A stretch of DNA of 64,000 nt from Diphasiastrum complanatum (lineage: Eukaryota > Streptophyta > Lycopodiopsida > Lycopodiales > Lycopodiaceae). Below the pieces are notes generated by a model. That model saw nothing but the letters and a program-made list of their open reading frames with translations. It did no database searches and had not been told where the DNA came from. This document shows positions 8,393 through 51,864 of the stretch, piece after piece. The stretch covers positions 35,408-99,407 of the forward strand of contig MU831872.1 in the NCBI GenBank assembly GCA_029204225.1. Direction: 5' to 3'. Within the stretch, counting starts at the first letter, position 1, and each line of letters begins with the position of its first letter. The translations under genes and the position numbers were made by a program.

Positions 8393-8501
<109 letters not shown>

Positions 8502-10237: not shown

Positions 10238-10455
<218 letters not shown>

Positions 10456-10800: not shown

Positions 10801-11806
<1,006 letters not shown>

Positions 11807-12294: not shown

Positions 12295-12945
12295 TGTGAA
12301 GGATTTCAGATCATCAAGATCCAATCCATGTCCCTGATCTTTGGTTACAACAAGGAGCAAACCAACAATCCTGCCAATGTAGAAAAATCAGCATCTACAT
12401 ACAAAATGAGATGCAAACTCTAAGAGATACTGATCAAACATGAACCAAAACATAAAATATGGTTGCTTTCCATACAATTATAGTACCCTACTGTATTTCA
12501 CATGTGTAAAACCGAAATCAAAATATGAGCATTCTACATGCAAGCTTGCAAGATATCATCAAGAGAGTGCAACAATGAGTAGTAGAACCCAAAGAGAACC
12601 ATGTATAATGATGAAATGAGAGAGAGAAGAGAGAAGATGTGTCTCTCCATGAGTTTCCTCCTTTTATAACAGGTCCAAACCCTATTTGGCCACTTGGCTT
12701 TCCCTCCAAAATGTAAACCCTACTATTTTTGGGTCTAGATTCAAAGTACCCAACATTCAAATTTGAAACTCTCTCAAAATTGACTACCTACTTTCCCACA
12801 CTTTCAATAAGTGTTTATTCAATGTTTTTTAAACCAATATAACTTCAAAAAGTTTATCTCTAAGTTCAAAATGAGTTTTGGCCTCATATTAAACAATTTA
12901 CCAAAATATGACTAAACTAGACTAAACTTGTTGAAATCTCTCACA
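12295..12945 (-). repeat. 3' LTR of the minus copia copy
   Basis: 651 bases, bounded on the reverse strand by TGTGAGAGATTTC... and ...GATTTCCTTCACA-type ends (TGTGA/TCACA inverted). It aligns over its whole length with the two LTRs of the plus copy, with scattered substitutions. The polypurine stretch (read AGAGGGAG on the reverse strand) adjoins it at 12946-12955. Confidence 0.88.
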
Positions 12946-13273
12946 CTCCCTCTTCAACCACACATTCACATGAAATAGCTCAAACATGAGATAGAACAAG
13001 TAAAGTAAACTTTAACAACACTTCCTTGCTGCTCCTTTGACCTTACTTGAGTATGAAATCTCCTGCAAAAATAGATCCATAACATTTTGCCAAACAACCT
13101 TCCTTTGATGCTCTTGACTAGCTTCAAATTGTCACCTTTCCTTTTATGTTGTTGAAGCCCTTTGAAACCAACCTCTTGATCTTCCTCTTGACCATCAAAT
13201 TCATTGAACAAAATTTGTTTTCTAGATCCATTACTTGATTTTCCAGCATGAAAACCATGAGAACCAATATCCA

Positions 13274-14818
13274 CTACATAGCATCATCTACACAAGAAGA
13301 TTCTCCAAAACATGTGAAGTGAGTCACTTCCACTTGCTTACCTTTCTCTTGATCATCAAAGATATCAAAGATATGAACATCTTTAGACTTGAACCTTTGG
13401 AAATACTCCCTCTCAAACATATGATCTAGATCCAACAAAATCTCATCAATGCTTGATCTCAAATTTCCACAAAGGTTAGTGAAAACAATGTCACCAATGT
13501 CACCATCATAAATCAAAAGATAGATTCCAAACTTTCCATCCAACATGAAGTAGAGTGGGTGAAGATGAGTACCAAACCTAATAAATCCAGCCTTCTTGAG
13601 TCCATAACAAACCTCAATAAGCTCACCAATGAGATCTCCCTTGCCTTGAAGAAATTGCCTCTCGATTTGCTCCATGTAGTCTTCTTCAACCAACCTTTTG
13701 CCATCTCCATCATGAGTGGTCAAATCACAATCATAGAATCCTTTGAGTTGATGAAGAGATGTGAGATCCATGCCTTGGATCTTCCCAAGAACCAATCTTC
13801 CATTGCTCTTTCCTTCATAAGACGCCCTCTTAATGATTGCATCATAAGAAGTAAAAACCTCAAAGACATTAGAAGCCATGAAAAAAATGATTAGTACCTT
13901 CAACATAAGGATTATTGAAGTACTCTATTTTTTCAAACAAGAACTTCTACTCAATGATTTAGGTAATGACTCATATGATAATGATTCTTCCTCACTATCA
14001 TTCACAATGACATCATTCAAAGTACATCCTACTTTGAACTCTTCACATACTTCTCTTCTTCTTGACTTGTGACTATCTCCCTCACCAAGTCTCTTGGTAG
14101 AACCATTTGATTTACTCTCTTTATGAAGACATGTGACTCCACTTGCTGCAAAAATGACTTTTTTGGACTCATCACAAAAGAATGTAGAAGAACCACCTTC
14201 TTCATGAATGCATCTAGCAACATCTTTTTCCATGTGATCAAGGAAATCATTAACAACAATCTTTTCCAAGGAAGAACCTTCACCACCTCCATTGATGAAG
14301 TTAGCTCTTTCCTTACCTTTTGCATGCTTGTACTTGTCATGAAGAACCATTAAAACACCATCATTATCCTCGTAACTAGCCAAGTTAGCACAAAGATGAA
14401 CATTTCCAAGAAGCATATTAGATCTTGACCTAGATCTAGCATAAGGAAGCTTGTTAGACTTTGCATAAGATCCACCAATCTTATTGATGCTAAAAGGTAA
14501 CTTTGGAAAGTTGAGACCAATCTCCTTTTCCATTCCATCCTTTTTGTTAGCCATAACAAAAGCATCAAGCTTGAAAAGTCTACCTTGTCTATTGCCCCTA
14601 TCAACCAAGATTTCTTCCTTTGTAATAAAACAAGCATCACCACCAAACTTTATCATGTATCCTTTCTCTATCATTTGACCAACACTTAGCAAATTCTTTG
14701 AAAGTGAAGGAATGTAAAGAACACCATCAAGTCTTGCTTTCCTATTAGTAGAAAGACAAATAGGAATTAAACCAATACCTTCAATCACACACTCACCACC
14801 ATTTCTTGGCTCCATCAT
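13274..14818 (-). pseudogene. Post-protease ORF with degenerate copia RT (minus copy)
   Basis: Two adjoining reverse-strand frames (13925-14818 and 13274-13906) carry the gag-pre-integrase-like segment (LYIPSLSKNLLSVGQMIEKGY), an unfamiliar Ser/Lys-rich middle, and then a segment that follows copia RT in order: LTSLHQL, EEDYMEQI, VCYGLKKAGF, GTHLHPLYF, FGIYLLIYDGDIGDIVFT. The RT catalytic YVDD is YDGD, and integrase is absent. The same replacement occurs in the plus copy, so it predates both insertions. Confidence 0.7.
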
Positions 14819-15060
14819 AAGTGACCAGAGAAGTAAAGAACTTCTTGTGACTAGTCATGTGTGAACTAGCTCCAATATCAATTCACCATGAATCTTTGTC
14901 ATTCACTTGATATTAGACTTGAAGAACACATCAAAAGAGAATCACCACCACCTAGATCCTCATCATTAGTAGTAAAGTTGATTTGCTTGCTACCTTCATC
15001 TCTTTGCTTCTTCAAACATTCATTAGCAAACTGCCCTTCGATTCCACAATAAAAGCATTT
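14819..15060 (-). pseudogene. Protease and zinc-knuckle segment of the minus copia copy
   Basis: The reverse strand near 14850-14900 reads DSW-stop-IDIGASSHMTSH where the plus copy has WWIDSGASSHMTSH. The protease active-site DSG is therefore DIG and a TGA interrupts the preceding Trp. A zinc knuckle (CFYCGIEGQFANEC, with Gln in place of the metal-binding His) lies at about 15020-15065. This copy cannot make an active protease. Confidence 0.75.
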
Positions 15061-15788
15061 CAACTTAGAATTATCTTTCTTTTTGCCAAAAGAGGAATTC
15101 TCACCTTGATCTTGACCTTTTGACCATTGCCTTTGGCTTTGCCCTTGAACTTGCCTTTGATGAACATAGCCTCCTCTTCATAATGAGATGTCGATGTAGA
15201 TCCACCTCCTCTTGATTGAAGCCTAAACTCCTTGTTCACCAAGATCTCTTGCAAATCCACAATATTTGACAAAGTTTTTTGAATAGCAAAAATTTGAACA
15301 AGATTAGCATGATCATCCAACAAGCCATTAAGTATAACTTGAACCAGTTCTACCTCCTTAATGCTCTCATCAATACATGCTAACTCATCATTGAATGCTT
15401 TAACCCTCAATACAAAAGCATGAGTACTCTCTTCCTTCTTTTGAAAACTTTGAAAGATTTGCCTCCTAAGAGTAAGCACTCTTGAAGTATACTTGGATTC
15501 ATAAATCTTATTCAGAGCTTCCCAAGCCTCCAAATATGATGTGCACTTACCAACTTCCTTGAGAAGTTCATTGGTAACATTCATCTTTATCATATGTAGA
15601 GCTTTATCTGCTCTCTTGTCATACATCACTTGATCTTGAGGTGCTTGAGGCCTCTCCTCCACACCTGCAACAATCTCCATCAACTCATTCATCTCCAATA
15701 AGGACTCCATCCTCACATTCCAAGTACAATAGTTGATTGAGGTAAGCCTATCATTGCCTTCCAACATGGATCCACCACTTGTAGCCAT
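15060..15788 (-). CDS. Copia gag (minus copy)
   Basis: About 240 residues from ATG at 15788 (MATSGGSMLEG). It has the UBN2/copia gag signature: YCTWNVRMESLLE near the start, ADKALHMIKMNVTNELL, CTSYLEAWEALNKIYES, LRRQIFQSFQKKEES and VLRVKAFNDELA, followed by a basic Lys/Gly-rich tail leading to the zinc knuckle. It would form the nucleocapsid of the retrotransposon particle. It is less damaged than gag in the plus copy, which has a 5-6-base deletion near 17937; a frameshift at about 15060 separates it from the protease region. Confidence 0.8.
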   Translation of the reverse strand: MATSGGSMLEGNDRLTSINYCTWNVRMESLLEMNELMEIVAGVEERPQAPQDQVMYDKRADKALHMIKMNVTNELLKEVGKCTSYLEAWEALNKIYESKYTSRVLTLRRQIFQSFQKKEESTHAFVLRVKAFNDELACIDESIKEVELVQVILNGLLDDHANLVQIFAIQKTLSNIVDLQEILVNKEFRLQSRGGGSTSTSHYEEEAMFIKGKFKGKAKGNGQKVKIKVRIPLLAKRKIILS

Positions 15789-16290
15789 GTTGCAATGACC
15801 TGATCTTCCTCTTTCAATCTGTTCCAATGCACAAAGCGCTCTCTTGAATGTCAACAACTCAAGAAAAAATCACAAAGATATGGAACCTCTCAAATCTCTT
15901 CTAACACTTCTAACTAGAAAATCAACACATAGAATACTGAAATCTTGATCAACCTATGATCTATCCTCAATCTAATGATTCTTGCCACTTCCTAAGATTA
16001 AAACACACTCAAATGAAGTTCAGTAACCTCACAAAATAGATATCCAATCAAAATTAGCGTTTTGACAAAATCACAAAAGATTGAATAGCTCAAATTCTAC
16101 ATGCAATTTCTAAAAACTTGATATATCATCTTGTAGCCTCCAATGAGACCTTCCTAATGCACCAAAAATCAACTAATTCTAGTAAACCAAGTGTGAAGTT
16201 GGAATTGATCAAGTATATAACCCTATATTGAGTTTTTACCTACAAAAGATCAATCCTACATATGCAAAAATGGAGATTTTTGAGTAGAAA

Positions 16291-16551
16291 TCAATCGAGA
16301 GTGAAAATGCACATTCAATGAGTGGTGAGAAAAATGAATGATAATGAAGAGTTCATGATAAAGAAGATGAGATATCGCCAACACTCCCTTGTATCCAGAA
16401 GCATATTTTTCTTGATTACCAACAACACTTCTCCTGTTGAACTTACAAGCTATGTATTGGAGTTCTAATGGTGTTATGTCATTGTTCATATATGCATAAA
16501 CCAAAAACACATTATATTCTATCTACTTGCATGCATTCTTGGAGTGCCTCC
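16291..16551. other. Spacer between the two copia copies
   Basis: 260 bases between the truncated minus copy and the plus copy. Its last five bases (16547-16551, CCTCC) are the target duplication of the plus copy. No gene seen. Confidence 0.7.
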
Positions 16552-17204
16552 TATGAGAGATTTCAACTAGTTTAGTCTAGTTTAGTCACATTTTGGTAAA
16601 TTGTCAATAAGAGGCCAAAACTCATTTTAGACTTAGAGATAAACTTTTTGAAGTTATATTAGTTTAAAATACATTCAATAAACACTTTTGGAAAGTGTGG
16701 GAAAGTTGTTAGTCGAGTTTGAGAGACATTCAAATTTGAACTTTGGGTACATTGAATCTAGACCCAAAAATAGTAAGGTTTACATTTTGGAGGGAAAGCC
16801 AAGTGGCCAAATAGGGTTTGGAAACTCTATAAAAGGATGTAACTCGTGGAGAGACACATCTTCTCTCTTATCTCTCTCATTTCATCATTATACATGGTTC
16901 TCTTTGGGTTCTACTACTCATTGGTGCACTATCTTGGTGTTATCTTGCAATCTTGTGTGTAGAATGCTCATTTATTGCTATTTTCGGTTCCACACGTGTG
17001 AAATACAATAGGTACTGTAATTGTAGGGACAGCAAACATATTTTATGTTTTGGTTCATGTTTGATCAATATCTCTTAGAGTTTGCATCTCATTTTGTATG
17101 TAGATGCTGATTTTTCTACATTGGCAGGATTGTTGGTTTGCTCCTTATTGTAACCAAAGATTTGGGACATGGATTGGATCTTGAATGATCTGAAATCCTT
17201 CACA
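16552..17204 (+). repeat. 5' LTR of the plus copia copy
   Basis: Starts TATGAGAG (TGTGAGAG in the 3' LTR) and ends CCTTCACA. Contains a TATAAAA box at 16828-16834 preceded by a CCAAATAGGG segment, a plausible promoter for the element. Confidence 0.92.
16828..16834 (+). promoter_or_regulatory. TATA box in copia 5' LTR
   Basis: TATAAAA about a third of the way into the LTR; the same motif is at the matching place in the 3' LTR (from 21468). It probably sets the U3/R border about 25-35 bases downstream, near a CT-rich start region. Confidence 0.6.
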
Positions 17205-17216
17205 TGGTATCAGAGC
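17205..17216 (+). other. Primer binding site, initiator-Met tRNA
   Basis: TGGTATCAGAGC immediately follows the LTR terminal CA. This is the standard primer site of plant copia elements, complementary to the 3' end of tRNA-iMet. Confidence 0.95.
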
Positions 17217-17805
17217 TCTTTTGTTTCAGGTTATGAAAGGTCATCCATCTTTAGCAAGGATTTGGAGGAGTTACCAATGTTAGAGCATGCTAGATTGATC
17301 TCTACTCAAAAATCAGCATTTTTGCATGTGTAGAATTGATCTTTTGTAGGTCAAAACTCAATATAGGGTTATATACTTAATCAATTCCGATTTCACACTT
17401 GGTTTACTGGATTTAGATGATATTTGGTGCATTAGGAAGGTCTCATTGAAGTCTACAAGAAGATATACCAAGTTTCTAGAAATTGCATGTAGAATTTGAG
17501 ATATTCAATTTTTTGTTATTTTGTCAAAACCCTAATTTTGATTGGATCTCTAGTTTGTGAGGTTACTGAACCTCATTTGAGTGTGTTTTAATCTTAGGAA
17601 GTGTCAAGAATCATTAGATTGAGGATAGATCATAGGTTGATCAAGATTTCACTATTCTATGTGTTGATTTTCTAGTTAGAAGTGCTAGAAGAGATTTGAG
17701 AGGTTCCATATCTTTGTGATTTCTTCTTGAGTTCATTTGTTGACATTCAAGAGAGTGCTTTGTGCATAGGAATAGGTTGAAAGAAGAAGATCAGGTCACT
17801 TCAAC

Positions 17806-18600
17806 ATGGCTACAAGTGGTGGATTTATGTTGGAGAGCAATGATAGGCTTACCTCAATCAACTATTCTACTTGGAAGGTGAGGATGGAGTCCTTATTGGA
17901 GATGAATGAGTTGATGGAGATTGTTGCAGGTGTGGACCTCAAGCACCTCAAGATCAAGTGAGGTATGACAAGAGAGCAAAGAAAGCTCTACACATGATTA
18001 AGATGAATGTTACCAATGAACTTCTCAAGGAAGTTGGTAAGTGCACATCATATTTGGAGGCTTGGGAAGCTCTGAATAAGATTTATGAATCCAAGTCTAC
18101 TTCAAGAGTGCTTACTCTTAGGAGGCAAATCTTTCAAAGTTTTCAAAAGAAGGAAGAGAGTACTCATGCTTTTGTATTGAGGGTTAAAGCATTCAATGAT
18201 GAGTTAGCATGTATTGATGAGAGCATTAAGGAGGTAGAACTGGTTCAAGTTATACTTAATGGCTTGTTGGATGATCATGCTAATCTTGTTAAAAGTTTTG
18301 CTATTCAAAAGACTTTGCCAAGTATTGTGAATTTTCAAGAGATCTTGGTGAATGAGGAGTATAGGCTTCAATCAAGAAGAGGTGGATCTACATCGACATC
18401 TCATTATGATGTTCATCAAAGGCAAGTCCAAGGGCAAAGGCAAAGGCAAGTGGTCTAAAGGGCAAGATCAAGGTGAGACTTCTTCTTTTGGAAAAAAGAA
18501 AGATAAGTCTAAGTTGAAATGCTTTTACTGTGGAATCAAAGGGCATTTTGCAAATGAATGTTTGCAGAAGCAAAGAGATGAAGGTAGCAAGCAAATCAAC
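17806..18600 (+). pseudogene. Copia gag and zinc knuckle (plus copy, frameshifted)
   Basis: ATG at 17806 (MATSGGFMLES). It matches the minus-copy gag, but a short deletion near 17937 shifts frame after IVAGV. The frame is recovered at 17958-18458 (ALHMIKMNVTNELLKEVG, SYLEAWEALNKIYES) and shifts again near 18410-18460. The CCHC knuckle CFYCGIKGHFANEC is at about 18520-18560. Confidence 0.85.
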
Positions 18601-18669
18601 TTTATTACTAATGATGAGGATCTAGGTGGTGGTGATTCTCTTTTGATGTGTTCTTCAAGTCCAATATCA

Positions 18670-18800
18670 AGTGAAGGTGACAAAGATTCATGGTGGATTG
18701 ATAGTGGAGCTAGTTCACACATGACTAGTCACAAAGAGTTCTTTACTTCTTTGGTCACTTATGATAGAGCCAAGAAAGCAATTCACATGGCCAATGGTGG
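18670..18800 (+). pseudogene. Copia aspartic protease segment
   Basis: WWIDSGASSHMTSHKEFF carries the retropepsin active site DSG, followed by HMANGGECVIEGIGSIPI. This matches the usual copia protease layout. The frame that contains it (18352-18954) breaks near 18880, where the next segment continues in another frame. Confidence 0.82.
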
Positions 18801-18879
18801 TGAGTGTGTGATTGAAGGTATTGGTTCAATTCCTATTTGTCTCTCTACTAATAGGAAAGGAAGACTTGATGGTGTTCTT

Positions 18880-21196
18880 TCCTTCACTTTCAAAGAATTT
18901 GATAAGTGTTGGTCAAATGATAGAGAAAGGATACATGGTAAAGTTTGGTGGTGATGCTTGTTTCATTACAAAGGAAGAAATCTTGGTTGCTAGGGGCAAT
19001 AGACAAGGTAGACTTTTCAAGCTTGATGCTTTTGTTATGGCTAACAAAAAGGATGGAATGGAAAAGGAGATTGGTCTCAACTTTCCAAAGTTACCTTTTA
19101 GCATCAATAAGATTGGTGGATCTTATGCAAAGTCTAACAAGCTTCCTTTTGCTAGATCAATGTCAAGATCTAATATGCTTCTTGGAGATGTTCATCTTTG
19201 TGCTAACTTGGCTAGTCTTGAGGATAATGATGGTGTTTCAATGGTTCTTCATGGCAAGTGCAAGCATGCAAAAGGTAAGGAAAGAGCTAACTTCATCAAT
19301 GGAGGTGAAGGTTCTTCCTTGGAAAAGATTGTTGTTAATTATTTCTTTGATCATATGGAAAAGGATGTTGCTAGGTGCATGCATGAAGGAGGTGGTTCTT
19401 CTACATTCTTTTGTGATGAGTCCAAGAAAGTCATTTTTGCAGCAAGTGGAGTCACATTTCTTCATAAAGAGAGTAGATCAAATGGTTCTATCAAGAGACT
19501 TAGTGAGGGAGATAGTCACAAGTCAAGAAGAAGAGAAGTATGTGAAGAGTTCAAAGTAGGATGTACTTTGAATGATGTCATTGTGAATGATAGTGAGGAA
19601 GAATCATTATCATATGATTCATTACCTAAAACATTGAGTAGAAGTTCTTGTTTGAAAAAAGAGAGTACTTCAATCATCCTTATGTTGAAGGTACTAATCA
19701 TTTTTTTCATGGCTTCTAATGTTTTTGAGGTTTCTACTTCTTATGATGCAATCATTAAGAGGGCGTCTTATGAAGGAAAGAGCAATGGAAGATTGGTTCT
19801 TGGGAAGATCCAAGGCATGGATCTCACATCTCTTCATCAACTCAAAGGATTCTATGATTGTGAATTGATCACTCATGATCAAGATGGCAAAAGGTTGGTT
19901 GGAGAAGACTACATGGAGCAAATCGAGAGGCAATTTCTTCAAGGCAAGGGAGATCTCATTGGTGAGCTTATTGAGGTTTGTTATGGACTCAAGAGGCCTG
20001 GATTTATTAGGTTTGATACTCATCTTCACCTACTCTACTTCATGTTGGATGGAAAGTTTGGAATCTATCTTTTGATTTATGATGGTGACATTGGTGACAT
20101 TGTTTTCACTAACCTTTGTGGAAATTCGAGATCAAGCATTGATGAGTTCTTGTTGGATATAGATCATATGTTTCAGAGGGAGTATTTTCAGATGGTCAGG
20201 TCTGAAGATATTCATATCTTTGATATCTTTGATGATCAAGAGAAAGGTAAGCAAGTGGAAGTGACTCACTTTGCTTTACTCACATGTTTTGGAGAATTTT
20301 CTTGTGTAGATGATGCTATGCAAGTGGATATTGGTTCTCATGGTTTTCATACTGGAAAATCAAGTAATGGATCTGAAAAAAAAAGTCTGTTCAATGACTT
20401 TGATGGTCAAGAAGAAGATCAAGAGGTTGGTCTCAAAGGGCTTCAACAACACAAAAGGAAAGGTGGCAATTTGGAGCTAGTCAAGAGCATCAAAGGAAGG
20501 TTATTTGGCAAAGATGTTATGGATCTGCTTTTGCAGCTTATTGAAGACTCAAGTAAGGTCAAAGGAGCAACAAGAAAGTTTTGTTCAAGTTTACTTTACT
20601 TGTTCTATCTCATGTTTGATCTATTTCATGTGGATGTGTGCAAATTGTCAAGATATGGACAAACTAGCTACATTGTCTTGCAATATCTTATTGTTGGAGT
20701 TGTACTAGCATTCTTGGCTGGTTTTGCTGATGGAAATGAAGCTATTGGAGGTTCATTATCTCACTCATTCATGGCCAAGTCATCGAGGGCTGATGATATC
20801 TCTTGGCAAGATGGAGATGGAGGCTTATTCATGGAGTTTTATGGTGGAGACATATCAAGAAAGGACAAAGTTGGAGGAGACAAGCAAGCAAATGGTCATC
20901 ACTCACATCTATTGTTTGGTTGCTGTAATTCTCCAGAGATTTCAAAGTTTGAAACATGGAAGAATCATTTCATTCACATTCTATTTGGTTCTTCATGTTC
21001 TAGTTATATCTTGATGTGTAAAATTGATGTAAGAAATAGTGAAGCATCCAATTTGGACACTATTCTCTATATCAATTATGAAAGATACTTTAGAACCCTA
21101 GAAAAAGGATCTATACTTAGGATGGAGATCATTCTAAAGTTGGATCAAAGTTCTATTGTCAAAACTATGCCAAAACTAGTTGAAGAGGGAGTGTGA
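18880..21196 (+). CDS. Long ORF with degenerate copia RT in place of pol
   Basis: An open frame of about 770 residues to the stop just inside the 3' LTR. Parts in order: a gag-pre-integrase-like start (PSLSKNLISVGQMIEKGYMVK); a Ser/Lys-rich middle of unknown origin (to about 19680); a segment that tracks copia RT (LTSLHQL, EDYMEQI, VCYGLKRPGF, RFDTHLHLLYF, GIYLLIYDGDIGDIVFT; about 19800-20110) with YDGD where the catalytic YVDD should be; a DFDGQEEDQEVG acidic part; a hydrophobic stretch (SYIVLQYLIVGVVLAFLAGFADG, possibly a worn RNase H start or a membrane segment); and a C-terminus unlike anything I know. No integrase DD35E. The frame is intact despite the lost catalytic site, and the minus copy has the same arrangement. 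Confidence 0.7.
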
Positions 21197-21845
21197 GAGA
21201 TTTCAACTAGTTTAGTCTAGTTTAGTCACATTTTGGTAAATTGTCAATAAGAGGCCAAAACTCATTTTAGACTTAGAGATAAACTTTTTGAAGTTATATT
21301 AGTTTAAAATACATTCAATAAACACTTTTGGAAAGTGTGGGAAAGTTGGTAGTCAACTTTGAGAGACATTCAAATTTGAACTTTGGGTACATTGAATCTA
21401 GACCCAAAAATAGTAGGGTTTACATTTTGGAGGGAAAGCCAAGTGGCCAAATAGGGTTTGGAAACTCTATAAAAGGATGTAACTCGTGGAGAGACATAAC
21501 TTCTCTCTTCTCTCTCTCATTTCATCATTATACATGGTTCTCTTTGGGTTCTACTACTCATTGGTGCACTATCTTGGTGTTATCTTGCAATCTTGTGTGT
21601 AGAATGCTCATTTATTGCTATTTTCAGTTCTACACGTGTGAAATACAGTAGGCTACTGTAATTGTACGGACAGCAAACATATTTTATGTTTTGGTTCATG
21701 TTTTATCAATATCTCTTAGAGTTTGCATCTCATTTTGTATGTAGATGCTGATTTTTCTACATTGGCAGGATTGTTGGTTTGCTCCTTATTGTAACCAAAG
21801 ATTTGGGACATGGATTGGATCTTGAATGATCTGAAATCCTTCACA
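21192..21845 (+). repeat. 3' LTR of the plus copia copy
   Basis: 654 bases, TGTGAGAG...CCTTCACA, followed by the target duplication CCTCC. It overlaps the last codons of the long ORF. Confidence 0.92.
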
Positions 21846-21850
21846 CCTCC

Positions 21851-24648: not shown

Positions 24649-25124
24649 TGTTGGAGGGTTTCTGGATCCCGAGGCAACCATAACCCTAGCTAATAAGTGA
24701 GAGGGATTTGGCACCCTTTGTATGTGTAAGTCCAACCCGATGATTACATAGTTATTTGATAATTAGAAAGTCATTAAAAGGACTTTAGGCCTTTTTGCGG
24801 GATTTTTAATGTCGCGGGGCCTAAATGTCAAGTTAGTGATTAAAGTTGGGACTCCCACCAAAATTGGTTCAAATTCAATTTCAAATTGGTTCTCTCCAAT
24901 CTAGAATGGGTTCCCACTCTTTTTTGTAGTGTTAATGGTTGTAGTGTTAACTGGTATGTTAATGGATGTTAGAGTTAGATGTGGATCTTTCATTAATGCT
25001 GAAATCTGAGATATGTTATTGCTCTCATGGGAACAAACCTACGCATGACAACTAAATTCATCTCCTTGATGCTAGAATGCTTAGATCTTGGGTTGAGGAT
25101 AGGCAAGGAAAGAAACCCACTACA
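24649..25124 (+). repeat. 5' LTR of gypsy fragment A
   Basis: TGTTGGAGGG...CCCACTACA. Compared with the 745-base LTR of element B it lacks about 270 bases internally. It shares the motif AATAAGTGAGAGGGATTTGG near its start and the GGGTTGAGGATAGGCAAGG end region. Confidence 0.85.
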
Positions 25125-25128
25125 ATTT

Positions 25129-25146
25129 TGGCACCATTGTCGGGGA
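25129..25146 (+). other. Primer binding site of gypsy fragment A
   Basis: TGGCACCATTGTCGGGGA, four bases after the LTR. This is the primer-site type of plant Tat/Ogre gypsy elements (TGGCGCCGTTGCCGGGGA), attributed to a tRNA-Arg primer as I recall. Confidence 0.8.
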
Positions 25147-26436
25147 GCTACGCCAATTTTTCGGTCTGCAGCATGTATGTTGGATGGTTAGCTTGCATTA
25201 GGCATCTTGTCGTGGCATGAATAGTATTAAATATGCATTTAGGGTTAGTTTGGAAGTGATTTTTCTTGATTTGAGTGGATTTACTTGTTTGAAATCTAAT
25301 CTGATTATTGAACAGGAGAAGCTATTCAGATCACCATATAGTTGATAACTTTTTATCCTCTTTCAAGAAACCTTCGCTGAGTTGCAGAAAGCTTCGGTTT
25401 CATTCACAAATTCTTCAAATTGAATGGCGAAGATTCATTCCTAGCAGATTTGCAGAAACATCAGAAAAACTACCAAAAAACGTCAAAAACCATCAAAACC
25501 CTAAAAAATACAGAAAAAGAACCTTCGTCCGATTCACTGTGCATAGGTGTGATTTAGATATATCTACTGCCAGGTTGGCAAATAATAATACCAAAAATAG
25601 AAGGCCAAAGTGACGAGTCATCTAGTTGTTGGTAACCTTTTGTGAAAAATTCACACCTTTTTGCAAAAATATCAATTCTTTGAGAAGAACCTTTGCCTAA
25701 ACCTTTGCCAGAATCTGTGTCAGTCCCACTTACTATTTCTGATAAAAAATAAGTTGGGCGAAGGTTTTCCAAAAGATCAGTTGTCATATTGTCATATTTT
25801 TTTCAAAAAAGTCTCTTTTTGTAAAAATATCAAGATTACTCTTGATTCTTCACCAGATCCTTCGTCGAGTTTTCTGAAGATTCTATTTATAGTAAGTTAT
25901 CAATTTTGAGTTCGACGAACGTTAATTTTATCAAGATCACAAAAAATCTCTATTTTTACCCTTGCCAAGCTACAGAAATTGTATTTCTATATGCTAGAAA
26001 CCGTCGTCGGTTTTACCCTAGATTTGGAAAAATTGCAGTTGCAATTTGATGACAAGATCAAAGTCTTGGAAGATTTCCATGGAAAAGCAAACAAGAAACT
26101 TGAGAAGTTTGCTAGGATTTTTCCTACCAGAAAAAAATGTCTGGTGTTCCATTTGTACGGGAAATAACACAACAAATGAATGTCCACAATTGAAAAAATG
26201 AATAGAAACCAGTATTTGCCATCTGTGCAATTCACCTGATCATGAAACTGCTTATTGCCATTTGAATCCTCGGATTATCCAGCAACGATATGCCCAGATG
26301 GGATATCGGAAACCCCTTTACGGAAAGGATCCTGCAGCCAAACCTCGTCTTGGGTATCCGGAGAGACTAGCTTTACCAGCTCCACCGACACAACCGGCTC
26401 CTCTTGCTAATTTGATGGAACCAGAACCTTACAGAG

Positions 26437-30749: not shown

Positions 30750-31340
30750 CAGGAGCTGTAGCTGGTAGTGGCTTCGGTCTTGCTGGACAGTTTTTATAGC
30801 AATGCCCATAACCACAATCACGACAGAATGGTACAATTTTTTTTTTATTTGGACATTCTGCAACTCTGTGATTTTCTCCACATGCAAAGCATCCAAGTGG
30901 TGCTCTGGTCCAGTTTCTAGATGCTTGTTGTTGCGCGGCAGCATAAATAGCATATTGTTTTGAAGATCCACCTTCTTGATCATTACCATAGTTCCATTGC
31001 TCGACACTTTTTTAAGGTTCTGGTTCCATCAAATTGGCAGGAGGAGCGGGGTGCTTTGGTGGGGCAGGTAAGGCTAATCGTTTTGGATATCCAAGAGTAG
31101 ATTGTCGAGGTCTAGCTGCTGGATTTCCTCCATAATGTGGTTCTCAATATCCCATCTGGGCATACCGTTGCTGAATTATCCGAGGATTGAAGTTGCAAAA
31201 AGCAGTCTCATGATCAGGCGAACTACACAAATGTCATATACTGATTTCCATTCATTTTTTCAATTGAGGACACTCATTCACTATGTGATTTCCTATACAA
31301 ATAGAACACTAGATATCTTCCCTAGTAGAAAAAGTCTTCG
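30750..31340 (-). pseudogene. Gag nucleocapsid part with four zinc knuckles
   Basis: Reverse strand in order: CSICIGNHIVNEC (about 31275-31313), CHLCSSPDHETAF (about 31190-31240), CFACGENHRVAEC (about 30860-30900) and CRDCGYGHCYKNC (about 30790-30830). The last three follow C-x2-C-x4-H-x4-C or nearly so; the first has x3. Several stops and frame changes lie between. Nucleic-acid binding by gag is the expected role. Confidence 0.65.
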
Positions 31341-31670
31341 CAAACTTCTCAGGTTCCTTGTTTGCTTGTCCATGGAAATCTTCCAATGCTTTGATCTTCT
31401 CATCAAATTGTGACTGCAACTTCTCCATCTGTTTCTACTGGTTCTTCCCGAGTTTCTCAAACTCATTGAGCATCATTTCTGCAGTAGCGTTGACATTCGT
31501 TGATGCAATAGTGGTGGATGTCATAGTGGTCTGTCTTGCTGTATAAGGCAATACCATTTCTCACTTTCCCATTTTAATTTTACTCTTAAAAGTAGGAAAG
31601 GGTCTTCCATAAACTTCTAAGGTTTGAACCATGTGATAAGGACTCATTTGATAGTCTCCCAATCCGTACG

Positions 31671-32700: not shown

Positions 32701-33124
32701 TTATGGTTTTTCTAATGTTTCTGAAAATCTGCTGGGAAGGATTGTTCGCCCTTCAAACTAAAGGTTTTGTGATTAAAACCAAAGTTGCCTGCAGTTCGGT
32801 GAACGTTTCTTAAAAGAGGGCAAAAGGTTATCAGCTCTGATGACGATTTTTGTCTTCTTTTGACCAAAATCTGATAGATTTGACCGATTTTTGTTGTTTT
32901 TTCTAATATCACAGATCCAAATGGATCTTAAGATTAGTGATTTGAATAGCTTTCCCTGTTCCACAATCAGATTAGATTTCAAACAAGCAAATCCACTCAA
33001 ATCAAGCAAAATCACTTCCAAACTAACCCTAAATGCAGATTTAACACTATTCATGCAACGACAAGATGTCTAATGCAAGCTATCCATCCAACAAACATGC
33101 TGCAAACTGAAACATTGGCGTAGC

Positions 33125-33142
33125 TCCCTGGCAACGGTGCCA
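33125..33142 (-). other. Primer binding site of gypsy element B
   Basis: Reverse strand TGGCACCGTTGCCAGGGA, four bases from the 5' LTR edge at 33147, matching the site of fragment A. Confidence 0.82.
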
Positions 33143-33146
33143 AAAT

Positions 33147-33291
33147 TGTAGTGGATTTTTTTCCTTGCCTGACCTCAACCCAAGATCTAATCAATCTAGC
33201 ATCAAAGAGATGAAGTTAGTTGTCACGCATAGATTCGTTCCCATGAGAGCGATACTATAGTTCAGATTTCAGCATGAATGGAAGATTCACA
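33147..33291 (-). repeat. Truncated 5' LTR of gypsy element B
   Basis: Matches the last 145 bases of the B 3' LTR. Similarity stops at about 33291, where unrelated sequence (ACTCGCGAGG) begins. Confidence 0.8.
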
Positions 33292-50500: not shown

Positions 50501-50689
50501 CTTGCAACAACATTATAATGACTCTAAATACTCAAAGGTCTTAGTGGGTCAAAATGACCATTACCCAGTTGACCATTCCTCAGGAAACATTATCGTTGGA
50601 AGATTCCATGCTACATAAAATAGGATGAAATGGCATAGCATCGTTTATCAATGGTTGTTTGAAATAATAGTATGTATGTTCTCGAAATA
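47176..50689. other. No gene recognised; one compound microsatellite
   Basis: 3.5 kb of mostly AT-rich sequence. A 129-residue open frame at 47879-48268 (SGYLYVLCMRLLFDQHFTL and so on) has no motif I know and is low confidence. 49000-50200 is very AT-rich with worn short repeats. Confidence 0.45.
47445..47520. repeat. (TC)13(AC)25 compound microsatellite
   Basis: TC run 47445-47470 passing directly into AC run 47471-47520. Confidence 0.97.
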
Positions 50690-51864
50690 TTACAACCGAG
50701 AGACAAATACTACATTGGTGGATGGATCATAAACTTTATAAGCTTTATGTTCATCAGGATAGCCAATGAAAATACATTTATTTGTCCTATGATCCAGCTT
50801 CTTCCTAAGCTGTTTAGGAATGTGAACAAAACATATACAACCAAAGATTTTTAAATGGCTGACACTAGGCTTGTGCCCATGCCAAACTTCATAAGGAGTT
50901 TTGTTGTTGATGGCTTTGGTGCTGGATCTATTCTGCACGTAACAGGCAGTGGTAGTAGCTTATGCCCAGAACTTCGCAGATAGGTGTGCTTGATGTATCA
51001 TGGATCTGGATGAGTTGAGAAGTGTTCAATTCTTTCTTTCTACAATTCCGTTTTGTTGAGGTGAATAGGAAGTGGTGAATTGTCTTCTAATGTCATGTTC
51101 AGCCATGTAGTTGGACATCTCATTAGAGAGGTATTCGCTGCCACCATCAGTTCGGAGTGCCTTTCACTTTTGTAGACATTTGTGTCTCAGCCATGGCCTT
51201 GAATCTCTTGAAGCATTCAAAGGCTTTAGATTCATGCTTAATGAACATGACTGTAGACCATCTAGAATAATTATCTATGAAAGTGATAAAATAGATTGCA
51301 TCTCCTAAGGACGGAGTTGGCATTGGACCACAAAGATCACTATGTACAAGATCCAATACATGCTTTGTTTTGATGGAATGCGATTAGGGAAACTTGCTTC
51401 TAGAGCGTTTGCCATAGCGCACGATTCACAAAAAACAGATTTCCTATCTAATGAAGAAGGGAAATACAATCCATCAACTAAGTTATTACAACACATATAG
51501 GAAAGTAATCTTGTATTCACGTGTCCAAATAGATGCTAGCTAATGCAACTGAATTAGAGAGTACGTAAAGATTTCCGACTCTAGTGCATGTAGTTAGATT
51601 AGTATCTTCCTCGAATATTGTACACTGCTTAGATGAGAAAGTAACAATGTAGCCCTCATCAGTTATCTTAGAGACTGATAACAGGTTCTTTGATAGTTGA
51701 GGAACGTGAAGGAAGTTGGGAACACAAATAGATAGATTGTTGTTGAATGTGATCTTGAATGTCCCTTTGCCTTCAACGCGTATGGTGCTTGAATCTCTGA
51801 GGTAGATAAATTGATCTCTGCTATAAGCTGCATACTCGGTAAACCATTCCTTGTGAGAGGTCAT
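50690..51864 (-). pseudogene. Copia pol fragment: protease edge, integrase
   Basis: Reverse strand, several frames: TSHKEWFTEYAAYSRDQFIY (behind the protease site), PQLSKNLLSVSKITDEGYIV (gag-pre-integrase), MDLVHSDLCGPMPTPS and ITFIDNYSRWSTVMFIKHES (integrase with its first Asp residues), GIVERKN (the Glu region), then TPYEVWHGHKPSVSHLKIFG and KCIFIGYPDEHKAYKVYDP (integrase C-terminal side). There is no RT or RNase H to the left and no gag to the right: only about 95 bases separate the protease edge from the primer site. A dead copia of a different family from the 12-22 kb pair, with a large deletion. Confidence 0.85.

What the first reader, a model, noticed from the sequence alone, without database searches (positions are those of the whole stretch)
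18880..21196. Copia family with decayed RT kept inside a long open frame
The frame behind gag/protease follows copia RT in order (LHQL, YMEQ, YGLK, FDTHL, IYLLIY) but has YDGD instead of YVDD, no integrase, and long unfamiliar segments. Both copies share this form, so it spread after RT was lost. An ORF of about 770 residues without catalysis suggests the protein is kept for another role (packaging, dimerisation with a helper RT, dominant interference) or that too little time has passed for stops to build up.
Basis: partly seen in the sequence, partly recalled or inferred. Interest (0 to 1): 0.72.

Follow-up and report, generated by a model that had tools for sequence, protein, structure and literature searches.

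The report
Jumping gene with dead, open tail
A plant copia-type retrotransposon family has lost its copying enzymes but still carries, behind a shell gene that remains under selection, a long uninterrupted frame whose amino acids drift freely, which suggests that keeping the frame open may matter more than what it encodes.

Summary
Window 16552-21845 is a young Ty1/copia element. Behind gag/protease lies a stop-free 770-codon tail with faint, colinear integrase and RT similarity. The catalytic motif is YDGD here, and YVDD in 0 of 21 rows. Pfam finds no RVT_2 or integrase.

In the youngest copies gag, protease and tail form one frame: 41 of 42 places sharing one gag score have 1086-1203 open codons.

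The proposed protein role (packaging, dimerisation, interference) is not supported: tail dN/dS is 0.95, against 0.44 for gag/protease in the same four copies (Fisher p=0.0065). 'Too recent' also fits badly: simulated neutral decay gives a mean of 7 stops already at 81% identity. Copies with one gag score carry several tail types and lengths; all 30 measured spans are in one phase.

Best reading: a semi-autonomous copia that supplies gag/protease, is copied in trans, and keeps a dead tail translatable without keeping its sequence. It resembles wheat RLG_Sabrina_SA and RLG_Quinta, which are gypsy. A new variant of a known kind. The helper, and why the frame is kept (for example escape from nonsense-mediated decay), are inference.

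The parts
16547..16551 (.). Target-site duplication CCTCC, left copy (right copy 21846-21850)
   Evidence: Sequence
16552..17204 (+). 5' LTR of element A (starts TA where the 3' LTR starts TG; ends CA)
   Evidence: 98.0% identical to 3' LTR over 652 bases
17205..17216 (+). Primer binding site TGGTATCAGAGC (initiator-Met tRNA type; label recalled)
   Evidence: Sequence
17806..18561 (+). gag with zinc knuckle; frame broken by small indels in this copy
   Evidence: Pfam Retrotran_gag_2 3.9e-17, zf-CCHC 2.7e-5; frames
18691..18879 (+). Protease region (label from a recalled motif), Pfam Pol_BBD
   Evidence: Pfam Pol_BBD 6.6e-14
18884..21196 (+). Tail: 770 sense codons without stop, TGA formed by 3' LTR start
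   Evidence: 50 places cover nearly all of it (two of them the window and its probable allele)
19058..19519 (+). Faint integrase-like stretch (codons 59-212)
   Evidence: Local score 82 vs shuffles 47.6+-8.5, 1 of 1000 reaches it; frame control passed by 3 of 6 copies
19841..20221 (+). Faint RT-like stretch (codons 320-446)
   Evidence: hhalign E 9.5e-4; score 90 vs 46.4+-8.8, 1 of 1000; frame control passed in 18 of 18
20078..20089 (+). YDGD in place of catalytic YVDD
   Evidence: Sequence; 0 of 21 rows have YVDD
20639..20803 (+). Exchangeable tail module: replaced by unrelated but open sequence in another subfamily
   Evidence: Alignment with L053; that module: 40 of 40 scored places at 98-100%, one being the query itself
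21182..21191 (+). Polypurine tract GAAGAGGGAG
   Evidence: Sequence
21192..21845 (+). 3' LTR of element A
12295..16303 (-). Element B: second, 5'-truncated, broken copy in inverted orientation; its 3' LTR is 12295-12945
   Evidence: 93.3% identical to A internally, lacks counterpart of 20641-21178

Best explanation
It is a semi-autonomous Ty1/copia element. The family keeps gag and protease under purifying selection and encodes one long polyprotein frame whose C-terminal tail probably descends from pol (integrase-RT) but has lost all catalytic identity. Copying and integration must come in trans from an autonomous copia (inferred). The tail stays open in the lineages that give rise to new copies, while its amino acids drift freely and modules are exchanged. 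The selected trait is therefore most likely translatability up to the 3' LTR, for example because an early stop would leave a long 3' UTR open to nonsense-mediated decay, or because tail length matters, and not a specific tail function. Shown: anatomy, dead active site, dN/dS contrast, long frames in the youngest copies, tail variants in phase. Inferred: pol descent (likely), helper in trans, reason for frame keeping, template switching as the route of tail exchange.
For: Anatomy. No RVT_2, INT or RNase H in Pfam. RT/INT similarity. gag/protease w 0.44 (nd 62, sd 36) vs tail w 0.95 (135, 36) in two independent pairs, Fisher p 0.0065; codon positions 29/25/46 vs 56/69/49, p 0.0037. gag/protease of copy L050 vs four others: 0.36-0.56; vs autonomous relative L019: 53.4% identity, w 0.16 with saturated dS. 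Shared tail variants: 103 non, 32 syn, 3 stop type in 15 copies, w 1.19; 74, 26, 1 in 13 copies. Stops expected in the tail from its own base make-up by codon position: 36.6; seen 0. Youngest copies: 42 of 134 gag places share one score, 41 of them with 1086-1203 open codons; 30 of the 42 have a listed tail partner, of 2 types and 5 lengths, every gag-to-tail span in the same phase. Neutral decay simulation: 0 of 200 runs stop-free at each of 0.1, 0.2, 0.3, 0.4 and 0.6 substitutions per site.
Against: Inside the recent burst stops are not clearly depleted (shared 3 seen, 4.7 expected; single 4 seen, 7.7 expected), and many places have short frames. The dN/dS contrast rests on four copies; in the A-B pair alone the gag part gives 0.84 and only the protease part 0.38, and tail values against the window copy range from 0.53 to 1.15. 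The tail keeps a coding-like G+C pattern by codon position (0.45, 0.33, 0.32; relative's pol 0.44, 0.36, 0.37), which long unconstrained drift should erase and which fits past constraint on amino acids. Pol descent is statistically weak, and the 'long drift with frame kept' argument leans on it. No helper, RNA or protein was examined; DNA of the youngest copies could not be fetched, except three gag pieces and one tail piece that are not from the identical-score sets.
Confidence: 0.5

Rival explanations
1. The tail protein has a sequence-specific function (packaging, RT dimerisation, interference with a helper, or another new role), now or until recently.
For: Long frames in the youngest copies; coding-like G+C by codon position; a fast-evolving protein can show dN/dS near 1.
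Against: Tail w 0.95 against 0.44 for gag/protease in the same copies; flat codon positions; part of the tail is replaced by unrelated sequence in abundant young copies. AlphaFold on codons 281-640 alone gives pLDDT 37.7, uninformative.
Confidence: 0.2
2. Simple recent decay: pol was lost shortly before the burst and stops have not yet accumulated.
For: Tail evolves about neutrally within the burst; many places have short frames; the window copy's LTRs are only about 2% apart.
Against: No Pfam pol domain at E up to 10; about 26% identity over 104 residues in the RT part to a relative whose gag/protease is 53% identical; simulated decay to 81% identity already gives 7 stops on average; length variants among the youngest stay in phase.
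Confidence: 0.13
3. The tail is not decayed pol but captured host or foreign coding sequence fused behind gag/protease, openness being inherited from the captured genes.
For: A module is exchanged for unrelated open sequence; long stretches without Pfam match; wheat RLG_Sabrina shows such replacement (PMC9744471, passages).
Against: INT-like and RT-like stretches in copia order and in the sense frame (with the exceptions given). No cellular source was seen, but none was properly sought: host genes would be hidden below the best-scored copies.
Confidence: 0.1

Closest known systems
RLG_Sabrina_SA and its variants, wheat (PMC9744471; passages and sections 11 and 17 read)
   Same: Semi-autonomous LTR element with intact GAG-Pro, no RT/INT, very high copy number; related variants carry swapped coding segments
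   Different: Gypsy, not copia; there the GAG-Pro region is replaced, here gag-PR stays and the tail behind it changes within one frame
RLG_Quinta, einkorn centromeres (PMC11302176; abstract and passages read)
   Same: Non-autonomous, one ORF with GAG plus a domain of unknown function (DUF1), supposed to supply GAG and be mobilised by RLG_Cereba
   Different: Gypsy, centromeric; no protease or pol remnant described in the passages read, and no dN/dS of DUF1 there
Non-autonomous RLC_Angela, wheat (PMC9744471, section 11 read)
   Same: Copia, non-autonomous, bursts in step with an autonomous partner
   Different: Its coding sequence is full of frameshifts and stops; here the frame is open
Tos17 (PMC3977881, abstract read) and BARE2 (as described in PMC9744471, section 17)
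   Same: Copia elements lacking gag function, supposed to be moved with help in trans
   Different: They lack gag; here gag-PR is kept and pol is lost
TR-GAG elements (search listing only; definition recalled)
   Same: LTR element with gag and no pol
   Different: Here protease and a long tail remain in frame

Membership tests
Ty1/copia LTR retrotransposon | LTR pair, TSD, PBS, PPT | tested here: met
   PBS label recalled
Ty1/copia LTR retrotransposon | copia-type gag and protease region | tested here: met
   Retrotran_gag_2, zf-CCHC, Pol_BBD above cut-off
Ty1/copia LTR retrotransposon | integrase before RT in pol | tested here: inconclusive
   Faint INT-like then RT-like stretches in that order
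Autonomous copia element | RVT_2 reverse transcriptase with YVDD | tested here: not met
   No Pfam match; 0 of 21 rows with YVDD
Semi-autonomous element (RLG_Sabrina_SA type) | GAG-Pro frame kept, no RT/INT | tested here: met
   gag/protease w 0.44 in four copies; long frames in young copies; the window copy's own gag is broken
Semi-autonomous element (RLG_Sabrina_SA type) | Gypsy superfamily | tested here: not met
   gag is copia type in Pfam; so it works like, but is not a member
Semi-autonomous element (RLG_Sabrina_SA type) | Autonomous partner with shared LTR ends, PBS and PPT | not tested
   L019 is an autonomous relative, but blastn of the LTR finds no match in it; no closer partner was found or fetched
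LARD or TRIM (definitions recalled) | No coding capacity | tested here: not met
   Open frames of about 1,100-1,200 codons
TR-GAG (definition recalled) | gag only | tested here: not met
   Pol_BBD region and tail present

The most novel reading that the evidence does not exclude
Frame without sequence: the element is selected to be readable up to its 3' LTR, whatever the tail says, because translation to the end protects or marks the RNA for packaging. Tails are interchangeable spacers, and any open sequence serves.
Probability: 0.3. Interest if true: 0.75.

Novelty: new variant of a known kind. Interest (0 to 1): 0.5.

Why it matters
Some non-autonomous plant retrotransposons carry ORFs of unknown function (DUF1 of RLG_Quinta, the RLG_Sabrina segments), and an open frame is easily read as a sign of function. 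Here the same copies give a built-in control: gag/protease is constrained, the tail is not, yet it stays open in the youngest copies. If confirmed, it makes a general and testable point: an ORF can be kept for being open and not for its product.

Tried and rejected
Rejected: the I-HmuI match in the tail (E 0.06, below cut-off) as chance. A Protein Data Bank search of the RT-like part gave one match at E 2.2, not used. The AlphaFold model of codons 281-640 has mean pLDDT 37.7, too poor for a fold search, so none was made. No similarity was found between codons 441-640 or 641-770 and the relative's RNase H part (198 and 950 of 1000 shuffles reach the score), nor between codons 55-260 and the 3' part of its integrase (417 of 1000). 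Shuffle tests on longer stretches are only moderate (whole tail 5, 6 and 0 of 300; codons 111-770 3 of 500). A plasmid tblastn found nothing, as expected. Rows dropped: L036 and L044 because only part of the element is there, L039, L041, L045, L048 as duplicates; one search's site counts also dropped L038 and L046. L051 was used only in part (first 600 bases left out, unrelated DNA). Codons with a stop or gap were left out of NG86 counts. dN/dS of L053 against the window tail (1.11) is not used, because it includes the unrelated module. One search was a script error, repeated; two searches were input errors. Paper searches: (listings); none was aimed at frame keeping without sequence constraint except, loosely, so I make no claim that this is not in print.

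Full report
What is there. Window 16552-21845 holds a complete LTR retrotransposon on the plus strand: LTRs of 653 and 654 bases, 98.0% identical over 652, flanked by the duplication CCTCC, with a Met-tRNA-type primer site behind the 5' LTR and a polypurine tract before the 3' LTR. Pfam gives copia gag, a zinc knuckle and Pol_BBD. In this copy gag/protease is broken by small indels. Behind it, 18884-21193 is open for 770 codons; the stop is formed by the first bases of the 3' LTR. At a recalled plant rate of 1.3e-8 per site and year the LTR difference means roughly 0.8 million years, more if the plant is slow. A second copy, B, lies on the minus strand at 12295-16303; it is truncated, has stops and shifts, and lacks the part matching 20641-21178.

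Is the tail decayed pol? Pfam sees no RVT_2, integrase or RNase H at E up to 10, whole or in five pieces. One of 20 sampled 10-kb stretches held a nearly intact autonomous copia, L019 (two overlapping frames), whose gag/protease is 53.4% identical to family copy L050, dN/dS 0.16 with saturated dS. Against L019, codons 59-212 of the tail align to integrase (score 82; 1 of 1000 shuffles reaches it) and codons 322-431 to RT (90; 1 of 1000), while the RNase H part and the C terminus do not align. hhalign puts codons 320-446 on RT with E 9.5e-4. For RT the sense frame beats the other five frames in 18 of 18 comparisons; for INT in 3 of 6, one antisense frame scoring 1-8 points higher in three near-identical copies. 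So pol descent is likely, not proven. The active site is dead: 0 of 21 rows have YVDD.

The family. A search with 801 bases gave 3989 first-look candidates, of which only the best 40 were scored: the window itself, one near-identical place that is probably the other allele, and 38 at 95-96%, most at exactly the query's length. I fetched the tail of 20 of the 38. Differences between pairs of the 15 kept copies are mostly 70-110 in 2310 bases, with two close groups at 4 and 12-25, so the burst is star-like. A protein search scored 58 candidates of 53,853: 50 places cover nearly all of the tail, 21 of the 50 have no stop (window and allele included), and 8 of those 21 have an open frame of 1140 codons or more, that is, gag, protease and tail in one frame. 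These are the best-scoring places, so the share of open frames is biased upwards.

Selection. Between two independent pairs of copies, gag/protease shows 62 nonsynonymous and 36 synonymous differences (dN/dS 0.44; codon positions 29, 25, 46), the tail 135 and 36 (0.95; 56, 69, 49); Fisher p 0.0065 and 0.0037. Copy L050 against four others gives 0.36-0.56 for gag/protease. Not all cuts agree: in the A-B pair alone the gag part gives 0.84 and the protease part 0.38, and tails of single copies against the window give 0.53-1.15 (rows L036 and L044 included). Among 15 tail copies, variants seen once: 186 non, 52 syn, 4 stop; shared variants: 103 non, 32 syn, 3 stop type, i.e. dN/dS 1.37 and 1.19; stops expected 7.7 and 4.7. 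With 13 copies shared variants are 74, 26 and 1, which is about 1.05 if one search's neutral ratio is used (my arithmetic). So there is no sign of purifying selection on the tail's amino acids within the burst, and only a weak shortage of stops, too small to count. Against free drift over a longer time stands the tail's coding-like G+C by codon position (0.45, 0.33, 0.32).

Why not simply recent? Simulated neutral substitution of the relative's pol gives on average 3.8 stops at 90% identity (2.5% of 200 runs stop-free) and 7 at 81% (none stop-free), and none of 200 runs is stop-free at any larger distance tried. From its own base make-up by codon position the tail should hold about 37 stops; it has none. 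A pol that has drifted out of reach of Pfam while free of stops was therefore not drifting without constraint on the frame. This argument needs pol descent.

The youngest copies. Another subfamily has, in place of window 20639-20803, an unrelated stretch that is also open, followed by 3' sequence nearly identical to the window's; that module gave 1318 first-look candidates, and 40 of the 40 scored are 98-100% identical. A protein search with this C terminus scored 150 places; 25 share one score, and 23 of the 25 have frames of 1140 codons or more; frames in the whole list run from 188 to 1228 codons, so frames seem to decay after insertion. A gag search scored 134 of 121,599 candidates; 42 share one score, 41 of the 42 with open frames of 1086-1203 codons, one of 867; no frame in the list exceeds 1203. 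Of the 42, 3 carry the window's tail type, 27 the other C terminus in five lengths (spans 3386, 3389, 3392, 3395, 3560), and 12, with frames of 1086-1090 codons, have neither tail in the lists. All 30 measured spans are equal modulo 3. These 42 were picked by gag score alone, and tail places were listed in whatever frame they lie, so phase was not selected by the search. Equal scores suggest, but do not prove, identical sequences.

Reading. The simplest account is a copia element that still makes gag and protease, is reverse-transcribed and integrated by another copia's enzymes, and exchanges tails, probably by template switching between co-packaged RNAs. Its source lineages remain open to the 3' LTR although the tail sequence is free. 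Escape from nonsense-mediated decay, or a need for translation or length, would do this; which one is not tested. Precedents are RLG_Sabrina_SA and RLG_Quinta of wheat and einkorn, both gypsy; non-autonomous RLC_Angela of wheat has a broken frame.

Odds.

Noticed in passing
L027:1166-1509 and C20:17.1-20.1 Mb: A fragment 80.5% identical to the tail region has 24 places at 92-100% clustered on contig C20 (one more at 38.55 Mb), which suggests a large duplicated array; other copies form inverted pairs 2047 bases apart on C1999 and C8.
   Followed up: no
L027:6603-6795: A piece 87% identical to the 3' part of the tail lies at the end of the RNase H frame of a different copia element, a possible recombination product or shared 3' sequence.
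   Followed up: partly
window 50669-51529, minus strand: Remnant of another copia integrase, 33-46% identical to ORFs of host copia elements.
   Followed up: no
window 12295-21845: Two copies of the same family lie in inverted orientation about 250 bases apart; B is cut off in its leader near the left end of A.
   Followed up: partly
window 24980-25334 and 32937-33291; 26025-26431 and 31013-31427: Further diverged inverted repeats (89% and 80%), perhaps a fold-back or nested element.
   Followed up: no
window 8395-8498, 10241-10453, 11701-11804: Three perfect CT/TC dinucleotide tracts of 104-213 bases within 3.5 kb.
   Followed up: no
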